Notes: generated from the sequence alone by a model not told the origin. 64,000 nucleotides of DNA from Candidatus Poribacteria bacterium (GCA_028818695.1 JAPPNK010000012.1:124001-188000), one strand, 5' to 3'. Numbered from the stretch's first letter, positions 56,315 to 63,664 are shown. Numbers and translations are program-made.

Positions 56315-57121
56315 CTACGGCTGCCGGTCGGTGTTGACGGTCGGCTCGTCGTTCCCGACAAAACGCTCAATCGTGTTGTGCGTCGCAGGGCGCGTGCGGA
56401 AGTCGGCGACCCAAGGCTCCCTGAAATACGCCTGTTTCTCGCGCGGCAGGGCGTTCAACACGGCGGGCGGAATCGTCAACCGGTGCCAGTGCGTCGCCAG
56501 ATGCGCGTAGGCGTTGAAAACCGTAACGCGCGGCGTGTCCCGCTTCCATTCGGGACCCGCATGGCACAGGTTTTCCGTGAAGAAAAGCGCGCTGCCGGCA
56601 GGGCAGTCGTAGCTTGTCAAAAACGGGCTGCGCTTCCCGTCCTCCAACGACATATGATCAGGATGCATCGGGAAGTTGGACTTGTGGCTGCCCGGTATGA
56701 AATGCGTCCCGCCGTCCTCTTTGGAAACTGCCGTCAACTCAAACGCGACGCGCACCATCCCCGCATGGATCCGCCCGTTGCGAACCCGATAGCCGAAGAT
56801 CGGGTCCCCCTGACTCGGGCCGCCGCCATGCAAACCGCCCGCGCTCTGACCCTTATGCCGCCAGATGCAAAAACTGCTCTCCAGACGGATTTCAGGCCCG
56901 ATGATGTCCTGCAGAACGCCGATCACCATCGGATGATCAATCAACACGCTGGACGGACCGCCCGGCACGGCGCGATGTTCAGGCGGCAGCGATTCAGGGT
57001 CATGCTTGATGCGGTCGATCTGGTCAATGATCGCGTCGATCTCGTCTTGGGACAGAATCGCCGGACGCAGCAGATACCCGTTCAGGTCAAAACGAAAACG
57101 CTCCTCGTCGGTCATTTTCAT
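56315..57121 (-). CDS. Phytanoyl-CoA dioxygenase-like protein (altered iron site)
   Basis: 268 residues of the PhyH family of Fe(II)/2-oxoglutarate enzymes. MTDEERFRFDLNGYLLRP is the usual start, GGTHFIPGSHKSNFP the conserved strand, and His187 with Arg198 (CHAGPEWKRDTPRVT) are the distal iron ligand and 2-oxoglutarate anchor. At the expected HxD motif the protein reads His98-Gly-Gly (GLHGGGP), so the carboxylate ligand is missing or supplied elsewhere. ATG 57121 is chosen because GGAGG lies eight bases upstream. Substrate unknown. selD follows 54 bases downstream on the same strand. Confidence 0.8.
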   Translation of the reverse strand: MKMTDEERFRFDLNGYLLRPAILSQDEIDAIIDQIDRIKHDPESLPPEHRAVPGGPSSVLIDHPMVIGVLQDIIGPEIRLESSFCIWRHKGQSAGGLHGGGPSQGDPIFGYRVRNGRIHAGMVRVAFELTAVSKEDGGTHFIPGSHKSNFPMHPDHMSLEDGKRSPFLTSYDCPAGSALFFTENLCHAGPEWKRDTPRVTVFNAYAHLATHWHRLTIPPAVLNALPREKQAYFREPWVADFRTRPATHNTIERFVGNDEPTVNTDRQP

Positions 57122-57205
57122 CGAAAAAGCCTCCATAACGAACCGATTGCCGATACAGCGTAACGCATCGGAGCGGGGGGCGCAAGGAAGAACAAGTCTG
57201 GTTCG

Positions 57206-57697
57206 TTAGTCTGCCTCGCCCGCCTTTTCCAGAGCTAGACGGATGACCGATTCGCCTAGACGCACTCCGCTGTCTTTCAATGCGATTAAATGCGGTTCAA
57301 CCTTGTCAATCAAACGCTTCTCCTTTGCCTCCATCAAAACGCCGACAATCCCCTTGACGATTAACCCGCGTTCTTTGGCTTCCTTCCGCGCTTTTTTATC
57401 GTCCATAAGAACGAAACGCGCCTTTTTCTCGTCGGCAAAAGCAAAAGCCGCGGCTTCCCCATCGCCAGGTCTATAACCGTCCTCTGTTTTTTGCGGGTTC
57501 TGTAAATCAACGACTCGGATCCATGGGGCGTTGTCAAGCGCCTCACGGCGGGCAATTGGAGACCATCGAAGAAACTCGTTTTCAACGGCTCTAGGAATCA
57601 GAACCTCTGTATACAGATCCCGAAGAAGAGAAAGCAGATTCAGATTGAACAGCCCGACAAGCGGGCTGTTGTCGCTGACGACAGGACCTAATGACAT
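57206..57697 (-). CDS. DUF3368 PIN-like toxin, copy 1
   Basis: 163 residues of the DUF3368 family, PIN-fold predicted nucleases. VVSDNSPLVGL holds the first acidic residue, GDGEAAAFAFADEK the Glu, and VLMDDKKARKEAKERGL the paired Asp residues, which together form the acidic PIN centre. VKGIVGVLMEAKEKRLIDKV is the family C-terminal block. The ATG directly follows the antitoxin TGA with no spacer, as in copies 2 and 3. The likely action is RNA cleavage held in check by the upstream protein. Confidence 0.82.
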   Translation of the reverse strand: MSLGPVVSDNSPLVGLFNLNLLSLLRDLYTEVLIPRAVENEFLRWSPIARREALDNAPWIRVVDLQNPQKTEDGYRPGDGEAAAFAFADEKKARFVLMDDKKARKEAKERGLIVKGIVGVLMEAKEKRLIDKVEPHLIALKDSGVRLGESVIRLALEKAGEAD

Positions 57698-58210
57698 TCA
57701 AAGCCCGTCGTCGTCATCGGTGACGGTGATGAGATAAAGCCCGTAATCGCCCATGAGATACCAAAACTCTTCGCGCATCACGCCGGCAAGCTTCGCCGCA
57801 AGACCGCTGCCGAGCTCGTCGTTCGCGTAATAGCGCATCGCCAAGGCGACGCGAGCCTCCTTGTCCATCTCAAACGGGACGCCATCCCGCGGTCTCAACA
57901 GCTCCGCAATCTCTGTCGGCAGACGAACGCCTGTTTTCTCTTCAAAGGCGGCGGCGCTTCCGAAGGTCTCCTCAAATGCGGCGGCAACGTCCACGCCTTG
58001 AAGGAGCGACGCGGACAGGTCGTCCCGCGCGCCTTCCCAATCTTTTGCCAGCAGGCGCGTCTCGCCGCGTATGTAGAAGTGATGCGCGACCTTCGGACGC
58101 ATCTCTAGCAAGCAGGTGTAGTCCGCAATCGCCTTGTCGATTTCGCCTTTGGCGCGGTAAGCGTTGCCGCGCTGAAGATACGCCTCGGCGTCGTTTAGCG
58201 GTTTGCCCAT
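57698..58210 (-). CDS. TPR-UPF0175 fusion antitoxin, copy 1
   Basis: 170 residues. Residues 1-70 are two TPR units (AYLQRGNAYRAKGEIDKAIA). A linker follows (AAFEETFGSAAAFEEKTGV). Residues 100-160 match UPF0175 (LPTEIAELL; ARVALAMRYYANDELGSGLA then AKLAGVMREEFWYLMGDYGL), the usual antitoxin partner of DUF3368. A clean ATG at 58210 follows a weak ribosome site. Bases 57919-58210 are identical to 59032-59323, so copying was recent. UPF0175 normally binds DNA and the toxin; the TPR part is an unusual addition. Confidence 0.8.
   Translation of the reverse strand: MGKPLNDAEAYLQRGNAYRAKGEIDKAIADYTCLLEMRPKVAHHFYIRGETRLLAKDWEGARDDLSASLLQGVDVAAAFEETFGSAAAFEEKTGVRLPTEIAELLRPRDGVPFEMDKEARVALAMRYYANDELGSGLAAKLAGVMREEFWYLMGDYGLYLITVTDDDDGL
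57919..58210. repeat. Segmental duplication shared by antitoxin copies
   Basis: By eye these 292 bases are identical to 59032-59323, and about 225 of them also match 60122-60349 without difference. The neighbouring toxin genes differ at many positions, so sequence exchange seems confined to the antitoxin part. Confidence 0.8.
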
Positions 58211-58321
58211 GGACTTTCTCCACGCTTCAATTTCTCAAAACGGTTGATTCTACGGTAGCGCGCCAGGCGGGCGATGTCAAACGCAGCGGCGGAGGGCGCA
58301 AGAAAGAGTGCGTCTTGTTCG

Positions 58322-58813
58322 TTAGTCCGCCTCGCCTGCCATTTCCAGAACTCGACGGATGACCGAATCGGTTATATACATCCCGCTTTCTTTCAATGCG
58401 ATCACATACGGTTCCGCCTTGTCGATCAAGCCTTTTTCCTTTGCCTCCAGCAAAAGGGCTAACGTTCTCTTGACGATAAACCCGCGCGCTTTGGCTGCCT
58501 TCCGTCCTCTATTCTCATCCATAAGAACAAGACGCGCCTTTTTCTCGTCGACAAGAACCAATGCTTCGGCTTCTCCTAGATCAAGGTTCGCATACTCCGC
58601 TATTTTGTGCGGGTCCTGTAAATCAACGACTCGGATCCATGGGGCGTTGTCAAGCGCCTCCCTGGAGGCTGTTGGAAACTTATCAAGAAACTCGTTTTCC
58701 ACCGCTCTAGGGATCAGAACCTCTGTATACAGATCCCGAAGAAGAGAAAGCTTCTTGATTTCCAACAGCGATATAAGCGGACTGGTGTCGCTGACGACAG
58801 GACCTTTTGACAT
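58322..58813 (-). CDS. DUF3368 PIN-like toxin, copy 2
   Basis: 163 residues. It shares LSLLRDLYTEVLIPRAVENE with copy 1 but differs strongly in the core-flanking parts: VVSDTSPLISLLEIKKL at the start, LGEAEALVLVDEK, VLMDENRGRKAAKARGF. The first two acidic positions are kept, while the second Asp of the VLMDD motif is Glu. A short AT-richer spacer with TTGACA separates it from copy 1. Confidence 0.8.
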   Translation of the reverse strand: MSKGPVVSDTSPLISLLEIKKLSLLRDLYTEVLIPRAVENEFLDKFPTASREALDNAPWIRVVDLQDPHKIAEYANLDLGEAEALVLVDEKKARLVLMDENRGRKAAKARGFIVKRTLALLLEAKEKGLIDKAEPYVIALKESGMYITDSVIRRVLEMAGEAD

Positions 58814-59323
58814 TCAAAGCTCGTCGTCATCGCCGACGCTAAAGATAGAAAGCCCGTAATCGCCCATGAGATACCAAAAATCCACGCGCGACACGCCGGC
58901 AAGACGGGCGGCAAGACCGCTGCTCAGCTCGTCGTTCGCGTAATAACGCATCGCCAAGGCGACGCGAGCGTCCTTGTCCATCTCAAACGGGACGCCTTCC
59001 CGCGGCCGCAACAGCTCCGCAATCTCTGCCGGCAGACGAACGCCTGTTTTCTCTTCAAAGGCGGCGGCGCTTCCGAAGGTCTCCTCAAATGCGGCGGCAA
59101 CGTCCACGCCTTGAAGGAGCGACGCGGACAGGTCGTCCCGCGCGCCTTCCCAATCTTTTGCCAGCAGGCGCGTCTCGCCGCGTATGTAGAAGTGATGCGC
59201 GACCTTCGGACGCATCTCTAGCAAGCAGGTGTAGTCCGCAATCGCCTTGTCGATTTCGCCTTTGGCGCGGTAAGCGTTGCCGCGCTGAAGATACGCCTCG
59301 GCGTCGTTTAGCGGTTTGCCCAT
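58814..59323 (-). CDS. TPR-UPF0175 fusion antitoxin, copy 2
   Basis: 169 residues. The N-terminal TPR part is identical to copy 1; the UPF0175 end differs where it would contact its own toxin (ARLAGVSRVDFWYLMGDYGL, then SIFSVGDDDEL). ATG 59323 is chosen for the GAGGAGAAA ribosome site; the frame opens 24 bases earlier. The stop abuts the toxin ATG. Changes concentrate in the last 60 residues, consistent with cognate pairing. Confidence 0.8.
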   Translation of the reverse strand: MGKPLNDAEAYLQRGNAYRAKGEIDKAIADYTCLLEMRPKVAHHFYIRGETRLLAKDWEGARDDLSASLLQGVDVAAAFEETFGSAAAFEEKTGVRLPAEIAELLRPREGVPFEMDKDARVALAMRYYANDELSSGLAARLAGVSRVDFWYLMGDYGLSIFSVGDDDEL

Positions 59324-59407
59324 GGGCTTTCTCCTCGCCGCGCTCATAACATGCCCCGCATCATGACATGCCCCGACGGGCGGGCAAGAAAGAACGCGCC
59401 TTGTTCG

Positions 59408-59896
59408 TTAGTCTGCCTCGCCCGCCTCTTTCAGAACTTTATAGCGGAGCGATTTGCTTATACGCTTTCCGCTTGCCTCCAATGCGATGATATTCGGTTC
59501 AACCATGTCAATCAAACTTTTCTTCTTTGCATCCAGCAAAATGCCCAATACTCCCGTGATGGTGAATCCGCGCGCTTTGGCTACCTTCCGTCCTTCCGCC
59601 TCATCAAGGAGAACGAGACGCGCCTTTTTCTCGTCGGCAAGAACCAACGCCGCGGCTTCTCCCTTATCAAGCGGATATTCCGCTATTTTTTCCGGGTCCT
59701 GTAAATCAACAACTACGATCCATGGGGAGCTGTCAAGCGTCTCCCGGCGGGCAGTTGAAAACTTTTTAAGAAACTCCTCTTCAACAGCGCGAGGAATCAA
59801 AACCTCTGTATAAAGATCCCGAAGAAGAGAAAGCAGATTGAGCCTCCACAGAAAAACAAGGGGGCTATTGTCGCTGACAACAGGACCTACCGACAT
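59408..59896 (-). CDS. DUF3368 PIN-like toxin, copy 3
   Basis: 162 residues, closer to copy 1 at the start (VVSDNSPLVFLWRLNLLSLL) and to copy 2 in the middle (KIAEYPLDKGEAAALVLADE). VLLDEAEGRKVAKARGF again has Glu in place of the second Asp. It ends LRYKVLKEAGEAD. It is preceded without spacer by the giant TPR antitoxin. Confidence 0.8.
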   Translation of the reverse strand: MSVGPVVSDNSPLVFLWRLNLLSLLRDLYTEVLIPRAVEEEFLKKFSTARRETLDSSPWIVVVDLQDPEKIAEYPLDKGEAAALVLADEKKARLVLLDEAEGRKVAKARGFTITGVLGILLDAKKKSLIDMVEPNIIALEASGKRISKSLRYKVLKEAGEAD

Positions 59897-62020
59897 TCAA
59901 AGCCCGTCGTCGTCATCGGTGATCTTAAAGAGAGAAAGCCCGTAATCGCCCATGAGATACCAAAAATCCTCACGCAGCACGCCGGCAAGACGGGCGGCAA
60001 GCCCGCTGCTCAACTCGCCGTTCGCGTAATAGCGCATCGCCAAGGCGACGCGCGCGTCCTTGTCCATCTCAAACGGGACGCCCTCCCGCGGCCGCAACAG
60101 CTCCGCAATTTCGGTCGGCAAACGAACGCCTGTTTTCTCTTCAAAGGCGGCGGCGCTTCCGAAGGTCTCCTCAAATGCGGCGGCAACGTCCACGCCTTGA
60201 AGGAGCGACGCGGACAGGTCGTCCCGCGCGCCTTCCCAATCTTTTGCCAGCAGGCGCGTCTCGCCGCGTATGTAGAAGTGATGCGCGACCTTCGGACGCA
60301 TCTCTAGCAAGCAGGTGTAGTCCGCAATCGCCTTGTCGATTTCGCCTTTAGCGCAGTAAACAAGACCGCGCTGAAGATATGCATCAGCGAAATTAGGTTG
60401 CAGCTGTATCGCCTTACCATAGCCATCGGCGGCTCTGTCAAAATCGCCTTTATGGGTATAAGCCTTGCCGAGATTCATATAGAGGCCGGCATTGTCTGGA
60501 TTGTCTGGGTCCAGTTCAATCGCTTTGTCAAAATCTTCAATGGCGGCGTCAAAATCGCTTTTTTGGGCGTAAGCCAAGCCGCGAGTGTTATAGACGCCGA
60601 GATCGTTTGGCTTCAGCTCAAGCGCCTTGTCAAAATCTTCGATGGCAGCGTCAAAATCGCCTTTTTGGGTGTAAGCTTCACCGCGAATGAGATAAGCGAT
60701 GGCGTTGTTCGGCTTCAGCTCAAGCACCTTATCAAAATCTTCGATAGCAGCGTCAAAATCGCCTTTATCTGCATAAGTGCAGCCGCGATTGTGGTAGGCG
60801 TCGGGATCGTTTGGCTCCAGTCCAATCGCCTTGGAATAATCTTTGATGGCCGCCTCGAAGTCGTTGTTTTCAGCATAAGAGCTGCCGCGATTGTGATAGG
60901 CTTCGGCGTATTTTGGGTCCAATTCAATCGCTTTGGTGTAATCTTCAATGGCGGCATCAAAATCGCCTTTTCTGGCATAAGCACCGCCGCGATTATAGTA
61001 GATTTTGCCATTGCTTGGGTCCTGTTGAATCGCTTTGGTGTAATCTTTGATGGCAGCCTCAAAATCGTTGTTTTCAGCATAAGCACTGCCACGGATGCTA
61101 TAAACGTCGGCAGAGCTCGGATCCAGTTCAATCGCTTTGCTGGAGTCTTCAATGACAGCCTCAATATCGCCTTTTTTCTCGTAAGCAATGCCGCGATTGC
61201 GATAGGCTTCGGCGTATTTTGAGTCCAGTTCAATCGCTTTGCTGAAATCTTCGATGGCTTTGTCAAGTTTATCTTTTTTACCATAAGCGTTGCCGCGATT
61301 GTGATAGGCATAGGCATCGTTTGAATCCAGTTCAATCGCTTTGGTGTAATCTTCGATAGCAGCGTCAAAATCGCTTTTTTGGATGTAAGCTGCGCCGCGA
61401 TTGTGATAGGCATAGGCAGAGTTTGGGTTCAACTCAATCGCTTTGTTGAAATCTTTAATGGCGGCGTCAAAATCGCTTTTTTGCGCGTAGGTAAAGCCGC
61501 GAGCCAAATAAAAAGCGAAGGCGTTGTCTGACTCCAGTTCAATCGCTTTGCTGGAGTCTTTGAGGGTGGCGTCAAAATCGCCTTTTACGGCGTAAGCAAG
61601 ACCGCGATTGTGATAGGCATAGGCATCGTTTGAATCCAGTTCAATCGCTTTGGTATAGTCTCTGATTGCAGCATCAAGATCGCCTTTATTGGCATGAGCA
61701 AGACCACGATTGTTATAGGCTTCGGCAGAGTTTGGATTGATCTCAATGGCTCTGTTGCAATCCTTTATGGCAGCATCAAAATCGCCTTTCATGTATGCGA
61801 CAATACCGCGTCTTAGGCTGTCCTGGACATCAGGTTCGCTGTATGACCTGTTATCCGCACTCTCATTCGGAAGGTCGCGGAACAGATACGGATCTGCCCC
61901 AAATTCCAGAAACTTTGCCGGGCTCAGAATAACGAGAGACTGCTGCTTTTCGTTAAACTGTGCCAGGCTCGGAACAAACTGTGCCGAGCTCGGAATAACG
62001 CGAGACAGTCTTTCGTTCAT
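59897..62020 (-). CDS. Giant TPR-UPF0175 fusion (about 16 TPR units)
   Basis: 707 residues. An unusual N-terminus of about 65 residues (RVIPSSAQFVPSLAQF) is followed by about 16 consecutive 34-residue TPR units with the consensus AYHNRGxAYxxKGDFDAAI, ending near residue 610. The C-terminal 100 residues are the same UPF0175 end as copies 1 and 2 (ARLAGVLREDFWYLMGDYGL). TPR solenoids bind protein partners, so the antitoxin may sense or recruit another protein. The gene has its own promoter and the DUF3368 copy 3 follows directly. The repeat region is richer in A/T than its surroundings. Confidence 0.82.
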   Translation of the reverse strand: MNERLSRVIPSSAQFVPSLAQFNEKQQSLVILSPAKFLEFGADPYLFRDLPNESADNRSYSEPDVQDSLRRGIVAYMKGDFDAAIKDCNRAIEINPNSAEAYNNRGLAHANKGDLDAAIRDYTKAIELDSNDAYAYHNRGLAYAVKGDFDATLKDSSKAIELESDNAFAFYLARGFTYAQKSDFDAAIKDFNKAIELNPNSAYAYHNRGAAYIQKSDFDAAIEDYTKAIELDSNDAYAYHNRGNAYGKKDKLDKAIEDFSKAIELDSKYAEAYRNRGIAYEKKGDIEAVIEDSSKAIELDPSSADVYSIRGSAYAENNDFEAAIKDYTKAIQQDPSNGKIYYNRGGAYARKGDFDAAIEDYTKAIELDPKYAEAYHNRGSSYAENNDFEAAIKDYSKAIGLEPNDPDAYHNRGCTYADKGDFDAAIEDFDKVLELKPNNAIAYLIRGEAYTQKGDFDAAIEDFDKALELKPNDLGVYNTRGLAYAQKSDFDAAIEDFDKAIELDPDNPDNAGLYMNLGKAYTHKGDFDRAADGYGKAIQLQPNFADAYLQRGLVYCAKGEIDKAIADYTCLLEMRPKVAHHFYIRGETRLLAKDWEGARDDLSASLLQGVDVAAAFEETFGSAAAFEEKTGVRLPTEIAELLRPREGVPFEMDKDARVALAMRYYANGELSSGLAARLAGVLREDFWYLMGDYGLSLFKITDDDDGL
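60355..61840. repeat. Tandem 102-bp repeats encoding TPR units
   Basis: About fourteen head-to-tail units of 102 bp (one of 105, one with a 9-base addition) within the giant TPR gene. Recurring blocks such as the complement of GGCGATTTTGACGC make slippage or recombination likely; unit number may differ between strains. Confidence 0.8.
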
Positions 62021-62107: not shown

Positions 62108-63490
62108 TTAAAACAGCCCCTGCTGCATCAGCTTGCCCGTGTACGGATTCGTCATCGGCGGGAGGGGGCAGGGGCGGTTGTTGAAGTAGTCGTCAATCGA
62201 CCAGAGGCTCAGCCGCCGGTAAGATTGACCGCGGACGGCAATCGTTCCCTGTTCCGCCGCGCGCGACCTCGCATCCGCAGACCCGACAGGTTCCAATGTG
62301 ATAAAGCGTCCAATCGCCGCCTTGTCGTTGTTGACGACGCCGATAAAGTCGCGCAGCGCGCTGGCGCTGAACTTCCCGCCCTTCACCTGCGCAAGAGCGA
62401 GACGCGAGTCCCAGTCGTCCGGCTGGTCGAACAGCATGCCGCGCCCGTCGACGCCGCCGTCCGCAACCTGCTTCGTGTTCGGCGCGAACCCAGGCAGGCG
62501 CGTCACCGCCCAGGATTCAAACTCAAACGGCTTCTCGCGCGCCAACTTGCGCGCCGACTCCAGATCGGCGGGAATCCCTTTGATCGGTATCGACTCATCC
62601 TTCAGGCGTTTCCGAACGAGATCGATCGCAAAGGAGCTGATGTCGATGCCTGCCCAGCGGCGTTTGAGACGACGCGCCGCATCAACCGCTGTGCCGCAGC
62701 CGCAGAACGGATCCAGCACAAGATCGCCCTCATTGGACGACGCCTTGACAATCCGCTCCAGCAGTTTCAACGGCTTTTGAGTAGGGTAACCCGTATGCTC
62801 GCTTGCCCACGGCATGATCGAATTGAGAGCGATTACATCATCCGGCAGTTTGCCTTTCTCATAGTCTCTTTCTGAACCGTCCGCTCGCCGCTGTCCCTTT
62901 GTCCATTTGTATGGAACGCGAACCTCGTCCACATTGAACGTCCAGCGGTTCGATTTTGTATAAAAAAAGATCGTGTCATGCTTGCGCGCAAACCGTTTCT
63001 TGGACGCTCCACCGCCGCTGTAGTACCACACGAGCTCGTTTTGGAAATGCCTCTCCCCAAAAACTGCGTCCATAACGATCTTAAGATAGTGGCTGGCGTA
63101 TGGGTCGCAATGGAGGTAGATGGAGCCTGTCGGTTTCAGCAGGCGGCTCATCTCTTCCAGCCGTTCCGCCATATAGGTCAGATACGCCAGCATTCCGCAC
63201 CTGCCGATGATGCGGCGCAGTCCGACCATCGCGTCATGCGCGGGGCGCGCTGGGGCGTTCTCAAACTTCGCATACCGTTCCGCTGCGGCGTCGTCCCAGT
63301 GCCATGTGTCGTTGAAGGCTCGGTATTGCGCTTTTCCGTCGCCCTTCGCGCCGAAGAGAACGTTGTAGTTCGCGTTGCTGTTGAACGGCGGGTCGAGATA
63401 GATCAGGTCGACGCAGTCTGCCTCCCATTCGCGCATCCAGTCGAGGCAGTCGCCGTAGTAGAGGCAGTTGGGCATAAAATCTTGCGCCAC
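62108..63490 (-). CDS. Beta-class DNA methyltransferase with possible Mrr-like nuclease tail
   Basis: 460 residues from GTG 63490, chosen because GGAAAGG lies six bases upstream; ATG 63475 is the alternative. DLIYLDPPFNSN (DPPF at 33-36) is motif IV; VLDPFCGCGTAVDAARRL near residue 258 is motif I. Motif IV before motif I marks the beta class (N4-cytosine or N6-adenine). The last 110 residues have GGVDGRGMLFDQ and LALAQVKGG; the D...QVK pattern resembles the Mrr-type PD-(D/E)XK core. This could be a methyltransferase with its own cutting domain. The frame reaches 63595 only through a TTG. Confidence 0.82.
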   Translation of the reverse strand: MAQDFMPNCLYYGDCLDWMREWEADCVDLIYLDPPFNSNANYNVLFGAKGDGKAQYRAFNDTWHWDDAAAERYAKFENAPARPAHDAMVGLRRIIGRCGMLAYLTYMAERLEEMSRLLKPTGSIYLHCDPYASHYLKIVMDAVFGERHFQNELVWYYSGGGASKKRFARKHDTIFFYTKSNRWTFNVDEVRVPYKWTKGQRRADGSERDYEKGKLPDDVIALNSIMPWASEHTGYPTQKPLKLLERIVKASSNEGDLVLDPFCGCGTAVDAARRLKRRWAGIDISSFAIDLVRKRLKDESIPIKGIPADLESARKLAREKPFEFESWAVTRLPGFAPNTKQVADGGVDGRGMLFDQPDDWDSRLALAQVKGGKFSASALRDFIGVVNNDKAAIGRFITLEPVGSADARSRAAEQGTIAVRGQSYRRLSLWSIDDYFNNRPCPLPPMTNPYTGKLMQQGLF

Positions 63491-63664
63491 AGCTCGCCTT
63501 TCCTGCGATTCCAATATGCTGTTCAGCGCGTCTGTCCACGCGCTTTTGTGCAGTATGCCAAACGCCGTCTGTTTGCGCAACGGCTCGCCTCTCAACGCTT
63601 CTTGACCGAGCGCGCCGGATCAAGTATCATCATTGCGTCAACTTGCCTCAACAAAGGACGCTAT

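What the first reader, a model, noticed from the sequence alone, without database searches (positions are those of the whole stretch)
57206..62020. Triplicated toxin-antitoxin array with TPR-fused UPF0175 antitoxins
Three head-to-tail pairs each have a TPR-UPF0175 protein followed with zero spacing by a DUF3368 PIN-like protein. UPF0175-DUF3368 is a known pair, but here the antitoxin carries TPR repeats (two units, or about sixteen in copy 3). A TPR sensor on an antitoxin could couple toxin release to binding of a cellular or phage protein. This is my strongest candidate for an undescribed system.
Basis: partly seen in the sequence, partly recalled or inferred. Interest (0 to 1): 0.8.

Follow-up and report, generated by a model that had tools for sequence, protein, structure and literature searches.

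The report
TPR-armed antitoxins with PIN toxins
In a Poribacteria genome, three side-by-side toxin-antitoxin gene pairs have antitoxins with a long protein-binding arm attached, a design conserved across this phylum and not described in the papers searched; it suggests that these toxins are released when the arm senses something, perhaps a virus.

Summary
Three minus-strand pairs (62020→57206) encode TPR–UPF0175 antitoxins followed at zero spacing by DUF3368/PIN toxins, all above Pfam cut-offs. The genome is a Poribacterium. UPF0175–DUF3368 is a known predicted type II toxin-antitoxin pair (COG2886–PIN; PADLOC PDC-S70, an unvalidated antiviral candidate). The TPR fusion was found in no paper searched. 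It is not a local oddity: at least 41 of 84 Poribacteria genomes carry it, and 42 of 55 fused antitoxins outside the window have an intact DUF3368 gene downstream.

New evidence here: (1) decay is one-sided, with 13 intact antitoxins beside broken or missing toxins and no intact toxin without its antitoxin; (2) at one conserved site antitoxin length runs from 245 to 970 aa while the UPF0175 end and toxin stay conserved; (3) one homologue adds a TIR domain; (4) in the window the TPR-linker DNA of copies 1 and 2 is identical over 89 codons although the toxins differ by about 35%; (5) composition and tree suggest transfer from another Poribacteria family. Most likely these are toxin-antitoxin modules whose TPR arm is a fast-evolving sensor. 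Toxicity, trigger and antiviral role are untested. New variant of a known kind.

The parts
59897..62020 (-). Antitoxin 3: N-terminal leader, about 16 TPR units, linker, UPF0175 (707 aa)
   Evidence: Pfam TPR_1 15 stretches, UPF0175 E 4.7e-11; ORF
59909..60118 (-). UPF0175 domain of antitoxin 3
   Evidence: PF03683, 47 bits
59408..59896 (-). Toxin 3: DUF3368 / PIN (162 aa); conserved acidic residues aligned with D9, E41, E81, D99 of toxin 1
   Evidence: PF11848 E 1.6e-8; PADLOC PDC-S70 E 1.8e-43; site alignment
58814..59347 (-). Antitoxin 2: two TPR units, linker, UPF0175; likely real start ATG at 59323
   Evidence: Pfam; GAGGAG before the inner ATG
58823..59029 (-). UPF0175 domain of antitoxin 2
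   Evidence: PF03683, 49 bits
58322..58813 (-). Toxin 2: DUF3368 / PIN (163 aa)
   Evidence: PF11848 E 4.3e-11; PDC-S70 E 2e-42
57698..58210 (-). Antitoxin 1: two TPR units, linker, UPF0175 (170 aa)
   Evidence: Pfam
57710..57877 (-). UPF0175 domain of antitoxin 1
   Evidence: PF03683, 45.2 bits
57206..57697 (-). Toxin 1: DUF3368 / PIN (163 aa)
   Evidence: PF11848 E 2.3e-10; PDC-S70 E 4e-39
57929..58195 (-). TPR+linker segment of copy 1, identical in DNA to copy 2 (about 59042-59308) and for about 75 codons also to copy 3 (about 60125-60349)
   Evidence: 0 substitutions in 89 codons between copies 1 and 2

Best explanation
Each pair is a UPF0175-PIN type II toxin-antitoxin module whose antitoxin has gained an N-terminal TPR superhelix. 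The UPF0175 domain holds the DUF3368 PIN ribonuclease inactive, and its predicted helix-turn-helix probably represses the operon. The TPR arm binds a polypeptide, most likely a phage protein or a host protein that changes on infection, and this binding weakens or removes the antitoxin so that the PIN toxin cleaves RNA and stops growth. In the window one such locus, probably acquired from another Poribacteria family, was tandemly triplicated. Its toxins have since diverged while the TPR-linker part is kept identical by gene conversion. SHOWN by sequence: domains, phylum-wide pairing, one-sided decay, variable arrays, homogenised sensor segment. INFERRED: neutralisation, RNase activity, autoregulation, TPR ligand, defence role.
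For: Domains above cut-offs. Toxins match PADLOC PDC-S70 at E 4e-39 to 1.8e-43. The modelled toxin half aligns to VapC/PIN structures (5x3t_B Z 12.4, rmsd 2.6 over 112 residues; 2mdt Z 11.7 over 118). Acidic residues E41, E81 and D99 are invariant in the toxins that cover them. UPF0175 was found in 73 of 84 Poribacteria genomes; all 53 long UPF0175 proteins parsed have at least 2 TPRs. Of 55 fused antitoxins outside the window, 42 have an intact downstream DUF3368 toxin. Decay is one-sided: 13 intact antitoxins with broken or absent toxin, 0 intact toxins without antitoxin once three contig-end cases are set aside. Ten loci sharing both flanks have antitoxins of 245-970 aa. Toxin identity tracks UPF0175 identity (rho 0.68) but hardly the N-terminal 60 aa (rho 0.25). 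Toxin dN/dS is 0.27 across the phylum against about 0.6-0.9 among the window copies (ratios of the values). One homologue is TIR-TPR-UPF0175 + DUF3368 (TIR_2 E 8.5e-16; ThsB profile E 2.8e-25).
Against: No toxicity, neutralisation or phage data exist for these proteins. In all 35 TPR-linked toxins outside the window that could be scored, the first PIN aspartate is asparagine, which could weaken catalysis, although the same change occurs in DUF3368 of cyanobacterial TA pairs. TPR arrays change length easily for mechanical reasons (tandem repeats), so variation alone does not prove selection for new ligands. Fusions were not found in phage, plasmid or viral collections. PDC-S70 is itself unvalidated (PMC12988326). 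The fused AlphaFold model gives no confident interface (pTM 0.55, linker pLDDT under 50).
Confidence: 0.5

Rival explanations
1. Ordinary addiction or stress module: the TPR arm only oligomerises or stabilises the antitoxin, or presents it to a protease, with no specific trigger. Array length drifts because tandem repeats are unstable.
For: Array length varies freely, down to 2 units. Repeats are generic TPR_1 with the usual variable positions. One-sided decay is expected of any TA pair.
Against: Two or more TPRs are kept in every long UPF0175 protein parsed. The last TPRs plus linker evolve under strong constraint (dN/dS 0.20). A TIR domain is added in one homologue.
Confidence: 0.28
2. The DUF3368 partner is no longer an active nuclease, and the locus is a TPR-controlled DNA-binding regulator with a PIN-fold corepressor.
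For: The first PIN Asp is Asn in 35 of 35 scored TPR-linked toxins outside the window.
Against: The window's three copies have Asp. E41, E81 and D99 are invariant where covered. The Asn form also occurs in UPF0175-DUF3368 pairs elsewhere. Toxins are lost in a one-sided way, as toxic genes are.
Confidence: 0.13
3. The TPR proteins are 'eukaryote-like' symbiosis proteins aimed at the sponge host, as TPR proteins of Poribacteria are usually read (PMC3909097).
For: TPR is the most frequent eukaryote-like repeat in Poribacteria.
Against: A C-terminal DNA-binding-type antitoxin domain and a coupled PIN gene point to the cytoplasm. No obvious signal peptide is seen in the N-termini by eye (no predictor was run).
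Confidence: 0.04

Closest known systems
COG2886 (UPF0175)-PIN / COG2405 (DUF3368) type II toxin-antitoxin pair (Makarova et al. 2009, PMC2701414; Geobacillus VapBC composite, PMC6929052)
   Same: Same antitoxin domain, same toxin family, antitoxin first, overlapping or abutting genes.
   Different: Known UPF0175 antitoxins are small; here a TPR superhelix of 2 to about 20 units precedes it. PMC2701414 does not mention TPR.
PADLOC PDC-S70 (unvalidated phage-defence candidate)
   Same: Toxins match PDC-S70 profiles over almost their whole length.
   Different: The antitoxins match the PDC-S70 profiles only weakly and only in the UPF0175 part; the TPR arm is outside those matches.
TPR-GreA/B-C-PIN conflict system (PMC8195603)
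   Same: TPR plus PIN with exchangeable N-terminal effectors, including TIR.
   Different: There a single protein with a GreA/B-C domain; here two genes, UPF0175 in place of GreA/B-C, and a DUF3368-type PIN.
CapRel (PMC9712102)
   Same: Functional model only: an antitoxin domain that doubles as phage sensor and frees a toxin.
   Different: Unrelated domains; one fused protein; trigger known there, unknown here.

Membership tests
UPF0175-DUF3368 (COG2886-PIN) toxin-antitoxin pair | UPF0175 domain in the upstream gene | tested here: met
   PF03683 above gathering score in all three
UPF0175-DUF3368 (COG2886-PIN) toxin-antitoxin pair | DUF3368 / PIN protein directly downstream, same strand | tested here: met
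   PF11848 in all three, zero spacing; PIN fold matches
UPF0175-DUF3368 (COG2886-PIN) toxin-antitoxin pair | Conserved acidic PIN residues | tested here: met
   D9, E41, E81, D99 present in the window copies; D9 is Asn in the TPR-linked relatives
UPF0175-DUF3368 (COG2886-PIN) toxin-antitoxin pair | Toxicity of the PIN protein and its neutralisation | not testable with these tools
   Only indirect: one-sided gene decay
PADLOC PDC-S70 | Toxin matches PDC-S70 profiles | tested here: met
   E 4e-39, 2e-42, 1.8e-43
PADLOC PDC-S70 | Partner matches PDC-S70 UPF0175 profiles | tested here: inconclusive
   E 0.002 and 3.1e-5 over about 45 residues
PADLOC PDC-S70 | Protection against phage | not testable with these tools
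   Unvalidated even for the family (PMC12988326)
TPR-GreA/B-C-PIN system | GreA/B-C domain between TPR and PIN in one protein | tested here: not met
   No GreA/B-C match; UPF0175 there instead and PIN is a separate gene; PIN-TPR-GreABC profile only E 0.05, below cut-off
Classical VapBC | PIN toxin with VapC fold | tested here: met
   VapC structures align to the toxin part
Classical VapBC | VapB-type (RHH, AbrB or Phd) antitoxin | tested here: not met
   Antitoxin is UPF0175; no such domain in the Pfam scan

The most novel reading that the evidence does not exclude
A phylum-wide family of modular immune receptors: the UPF0175 antitoxin-PIN core is a fixed trigger, the TPR array is a rapidly reshaped pattern-recognition arm that senses phage (or host) polypeptides, sometimes reinforced by a TIR effector. 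In the window one shared sensor segment is kept identical across three diverging toxins. A share of the 'eukaryote-like' TPR proteins of sponge symbionts would then be antiviral receptors rather than host-directed effectors.
Probability: 0.3. Interest if true: 0.82.

Novelty: new variant of a known kind. Interest (0 to 1): 0.6.

Why it matters
It offers a concrete case in which an antitoxin carries a recognisable, evolvable binding arm, so that the open question 'what releases a chromosomal toxin?' becomes a pull-down experiment. It also gives a cytoplasmic, conflict-related explanation for part of the TPR protein surplus of sponge symbionts, which is usually read as host interaction.

Tried and rejected
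TPR-UPF0175 outside Poribacteria: the one genome-contig scan returned only Poribacteria, but its two peptide patterns came from three near-identical sequences, so this does not show absence elsewhere. The Nostoc plasmid TPR hit is TPR-only. First-Asp-to-Asn was considered a hallmark of TPR-linked toxins and rejected as such, because Asn also occurs in small-UPF0175-linked toxins and in cyanobacterial plasmid DUF3368. Profile search of solved structures found no DUF3368 or UPF0175 relative, and Foldseek with the UPF0175 model gave only weak HTH-type matches (best E 0.72). The antitoxin-toxin read-through model was made to look for an interface, but no coordinates or PAE are returned and the linker is unreliable. 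Promoter and terminator scans did not exceed shuffles clearly. Genomes of other phyla could not be reached with the genome search.

Full report
What is there. On the minus strand the window has three head-to-tail gene pairs in the order 62020→57206. Each is a TPR–UPF0175 gene followed by a DUF3368 gene. Pfam confirms both domains in all three copies above gathering scores. The antitoxin stop TGA abuts the toxin ATG in each pair. Copies 1 and 2 carry two TPR units. Copy 3 carries about 16, behind a non-TPR leader of some 65-70 residues. The short copies most likely share the start MGKPLNDAEAYLQRG, because copy 2 has GAGGAG before its inner ATG at 59323. No other UPF0175 or DUF3368 gene exceeds cut-off in this genome, while other TPR genes are scattered through it.

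Where it is. All named relatives from the genome collection are Candidatus Poribacteria. In the phylum search UPF0175 occurs in 73 of 84 genomes. Taking the fetched loci together, at least 41 of 84 genomes (counted by hand) hold a long UPF0175 protein. The 53 that were parsed, the window's three included, all carry at least two TPRs. Nearly all lie in one family (f8). The window's genome (f1) and one f6 genome are the exceptions.

It is a conserved pair. Of 55 fused antitoxins outside the window, 42 are followed by an intact DUF3368 toxin, usually overlapping or 2-3 nt away. The other 13 have a toxin that is frameshifted, internally deleted, truncated or missing. A separate toxin-led search of the same genomes found no intact TPR-family toxin lacking its antitoxin, except three whose contig ends 1-8 bases upstream. 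Thirteen to zero gives a two-sided sign-test p of about 2.4e-4, although the antitoxin gene is the longer target. Two further toxins look frameshifted and were counted as intact. Caveats: these are MAGs, loci are related, and a fused antitoxin broken inside its TPR part could escape the count.

The toxin. PADLOC assigns all three to PDC-S70 (E 4e-39, 2e-42 and 1.8e-43). An AlphaFold2 model of pair 1, made by reading the single TGA between the genes as a residue, has mean pLDDT 88. Its toxin half aligns with VapC/PIN structures (Z 12.4, rmsd 2.6 over 112 residues for 5x3t_B). The acidic residues E41, E81 and D99 are invariant where covered. The first PIN aspartate is Asp in the window but Asn in 35 of 35 scored TPR-linked relatives. 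Asn also occurs in DUF3368 of cyanobacterial plasmids beside small UPF0175 genes, so it is a family-wide variant. In a toxin tree the window copies form one clade (100/100) inside the Asn-type f8 toxins (96/92), which suggests a return from Asn to Asp.

The antitoxin arm. Ten loci that share both flanking regions have antitoxins of 245 to 970 aa, so the array is reshaped in place. Among all pairs of loci, toxin identity follows UPF0175 identity (Spearman 0.68) and the last TPRs plus linker (0.64), but hardly the N-terminal 60 residues (0.25). Across the phylum dN/dS is 0.27 for toxins, 0.21 for UPF0175 and 0.20 for the last TPRs plus linker, so all are under purifying selection. One f6 homologue is TIR_2–TPR–UPF0175 followed by DUF3368 (TIR_2 E 8.5e-16; Thoeris ThsB profile E 2.8e-25). 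TIR is a common effector of bacterial immune systems.

The triplication. Copies 1 and 2 have identical DNA over 89 codons of TPR and linker, and copy 3 joins them over about 75 codons. Their toxins differ by dS 0.29-0.39 and dN 0.23-0.26, and the antitoxin C-tails differ mainly at amino-acid-changing sites, though on few sites. This is the pattern expected if gene conversion keeps the sensor part uniform while the toxin-antitoxin contact diverges, but a chance recent conversion tract cannot be excluded. Toxins (50-51% GC) and the TPR array (48%) are AT-rich against 58.7% for the window, with the converted C-terminal parts near 60%. f8 loci average 46.6% and f1 loci about 59-61%. Together with the tree this suggests transfer from an f8-type Poribacterium.

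What is known. COG2886 (UPF0175)–PIN was predicted as a TA pair in 2009 and that paper does not mention TPR (PMC2701414). UPF0175–DUF3368 is listed in Geobacillus (PMC6929052). PDC-S70 is an unvalidated candidate antiviral family said to be mainly archaeal (PMC12988326). TPR is the most frequent eukaryote-like repeat of Poribacteria and is read there as a possible host-interaction feature (PMC3909097). TPR–GreA/B-C–PIN proteins with exchangeable N-terminal effectors, TIR among them, are proposed conflict systems (PMC8195603). The GreA/B-C domain is absent here, so this is not a member, only similar in logic. No paper in the library joins UPF0175 with TPR; the library lacks most subscription journals.

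Mechanism. Most likely UPF0175 neutralises the PIN RNase and represses its own operon, and the TPR superhelix binds a polypeptide that disturbs this. Shown: the parts, the pairing, the one-sided decay, the variable arm. Inferred: neutralisation, RNase action, ligand, defence. The main rival is an ordinary TA module with a TPR used only for assembly or stability.

Noticed in passing
window 62108-63595 (-): An N6/N4 DNA methyltransferase fused to an Mrr-type nuclease domain (PF01555 + PF04471) lies 88 bp upstream of the array on the same strand, a possible restriction gene beside it.
   Followed up: partly
L052:4503-6218 (-), genome G020: TIR-TPR-UPF0175 antitoxin followed by a DUF3368 toxin; the TIR part matches the Thoeris ThsB profile.
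   Followed up: partly
N-termini of TPR-UPF0175 proteins, e.g. L049, L053, L080: A short motif like YNSDFA / YLHCGFA / YKHRFA recurs ahead of the TPRs (23 of 51 against 5.3 in shuffles, related sequences not corrected for).
   Followed up: no
L018 and L032 (genomes G019, G018): Toxins paired with small UPF0175 genes without TPR fall inside the clade of TPR-linked toxins, suggesting loss of the arm.
   Followed up: no
window toxins, first PIN Asp (57671-57673 in toxin 1): Window toxins carry Asp at the first PIN position although nested among Asn-type toxins, a possible return to the canonical catalytic residue.
   Followed up: partly
window 56315-57136 (-): A PhyH-family dioxygenase directly downstream of the array, one of the enlarged poribacterial phyH family noted in PMC3909097.
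   Followed up: no
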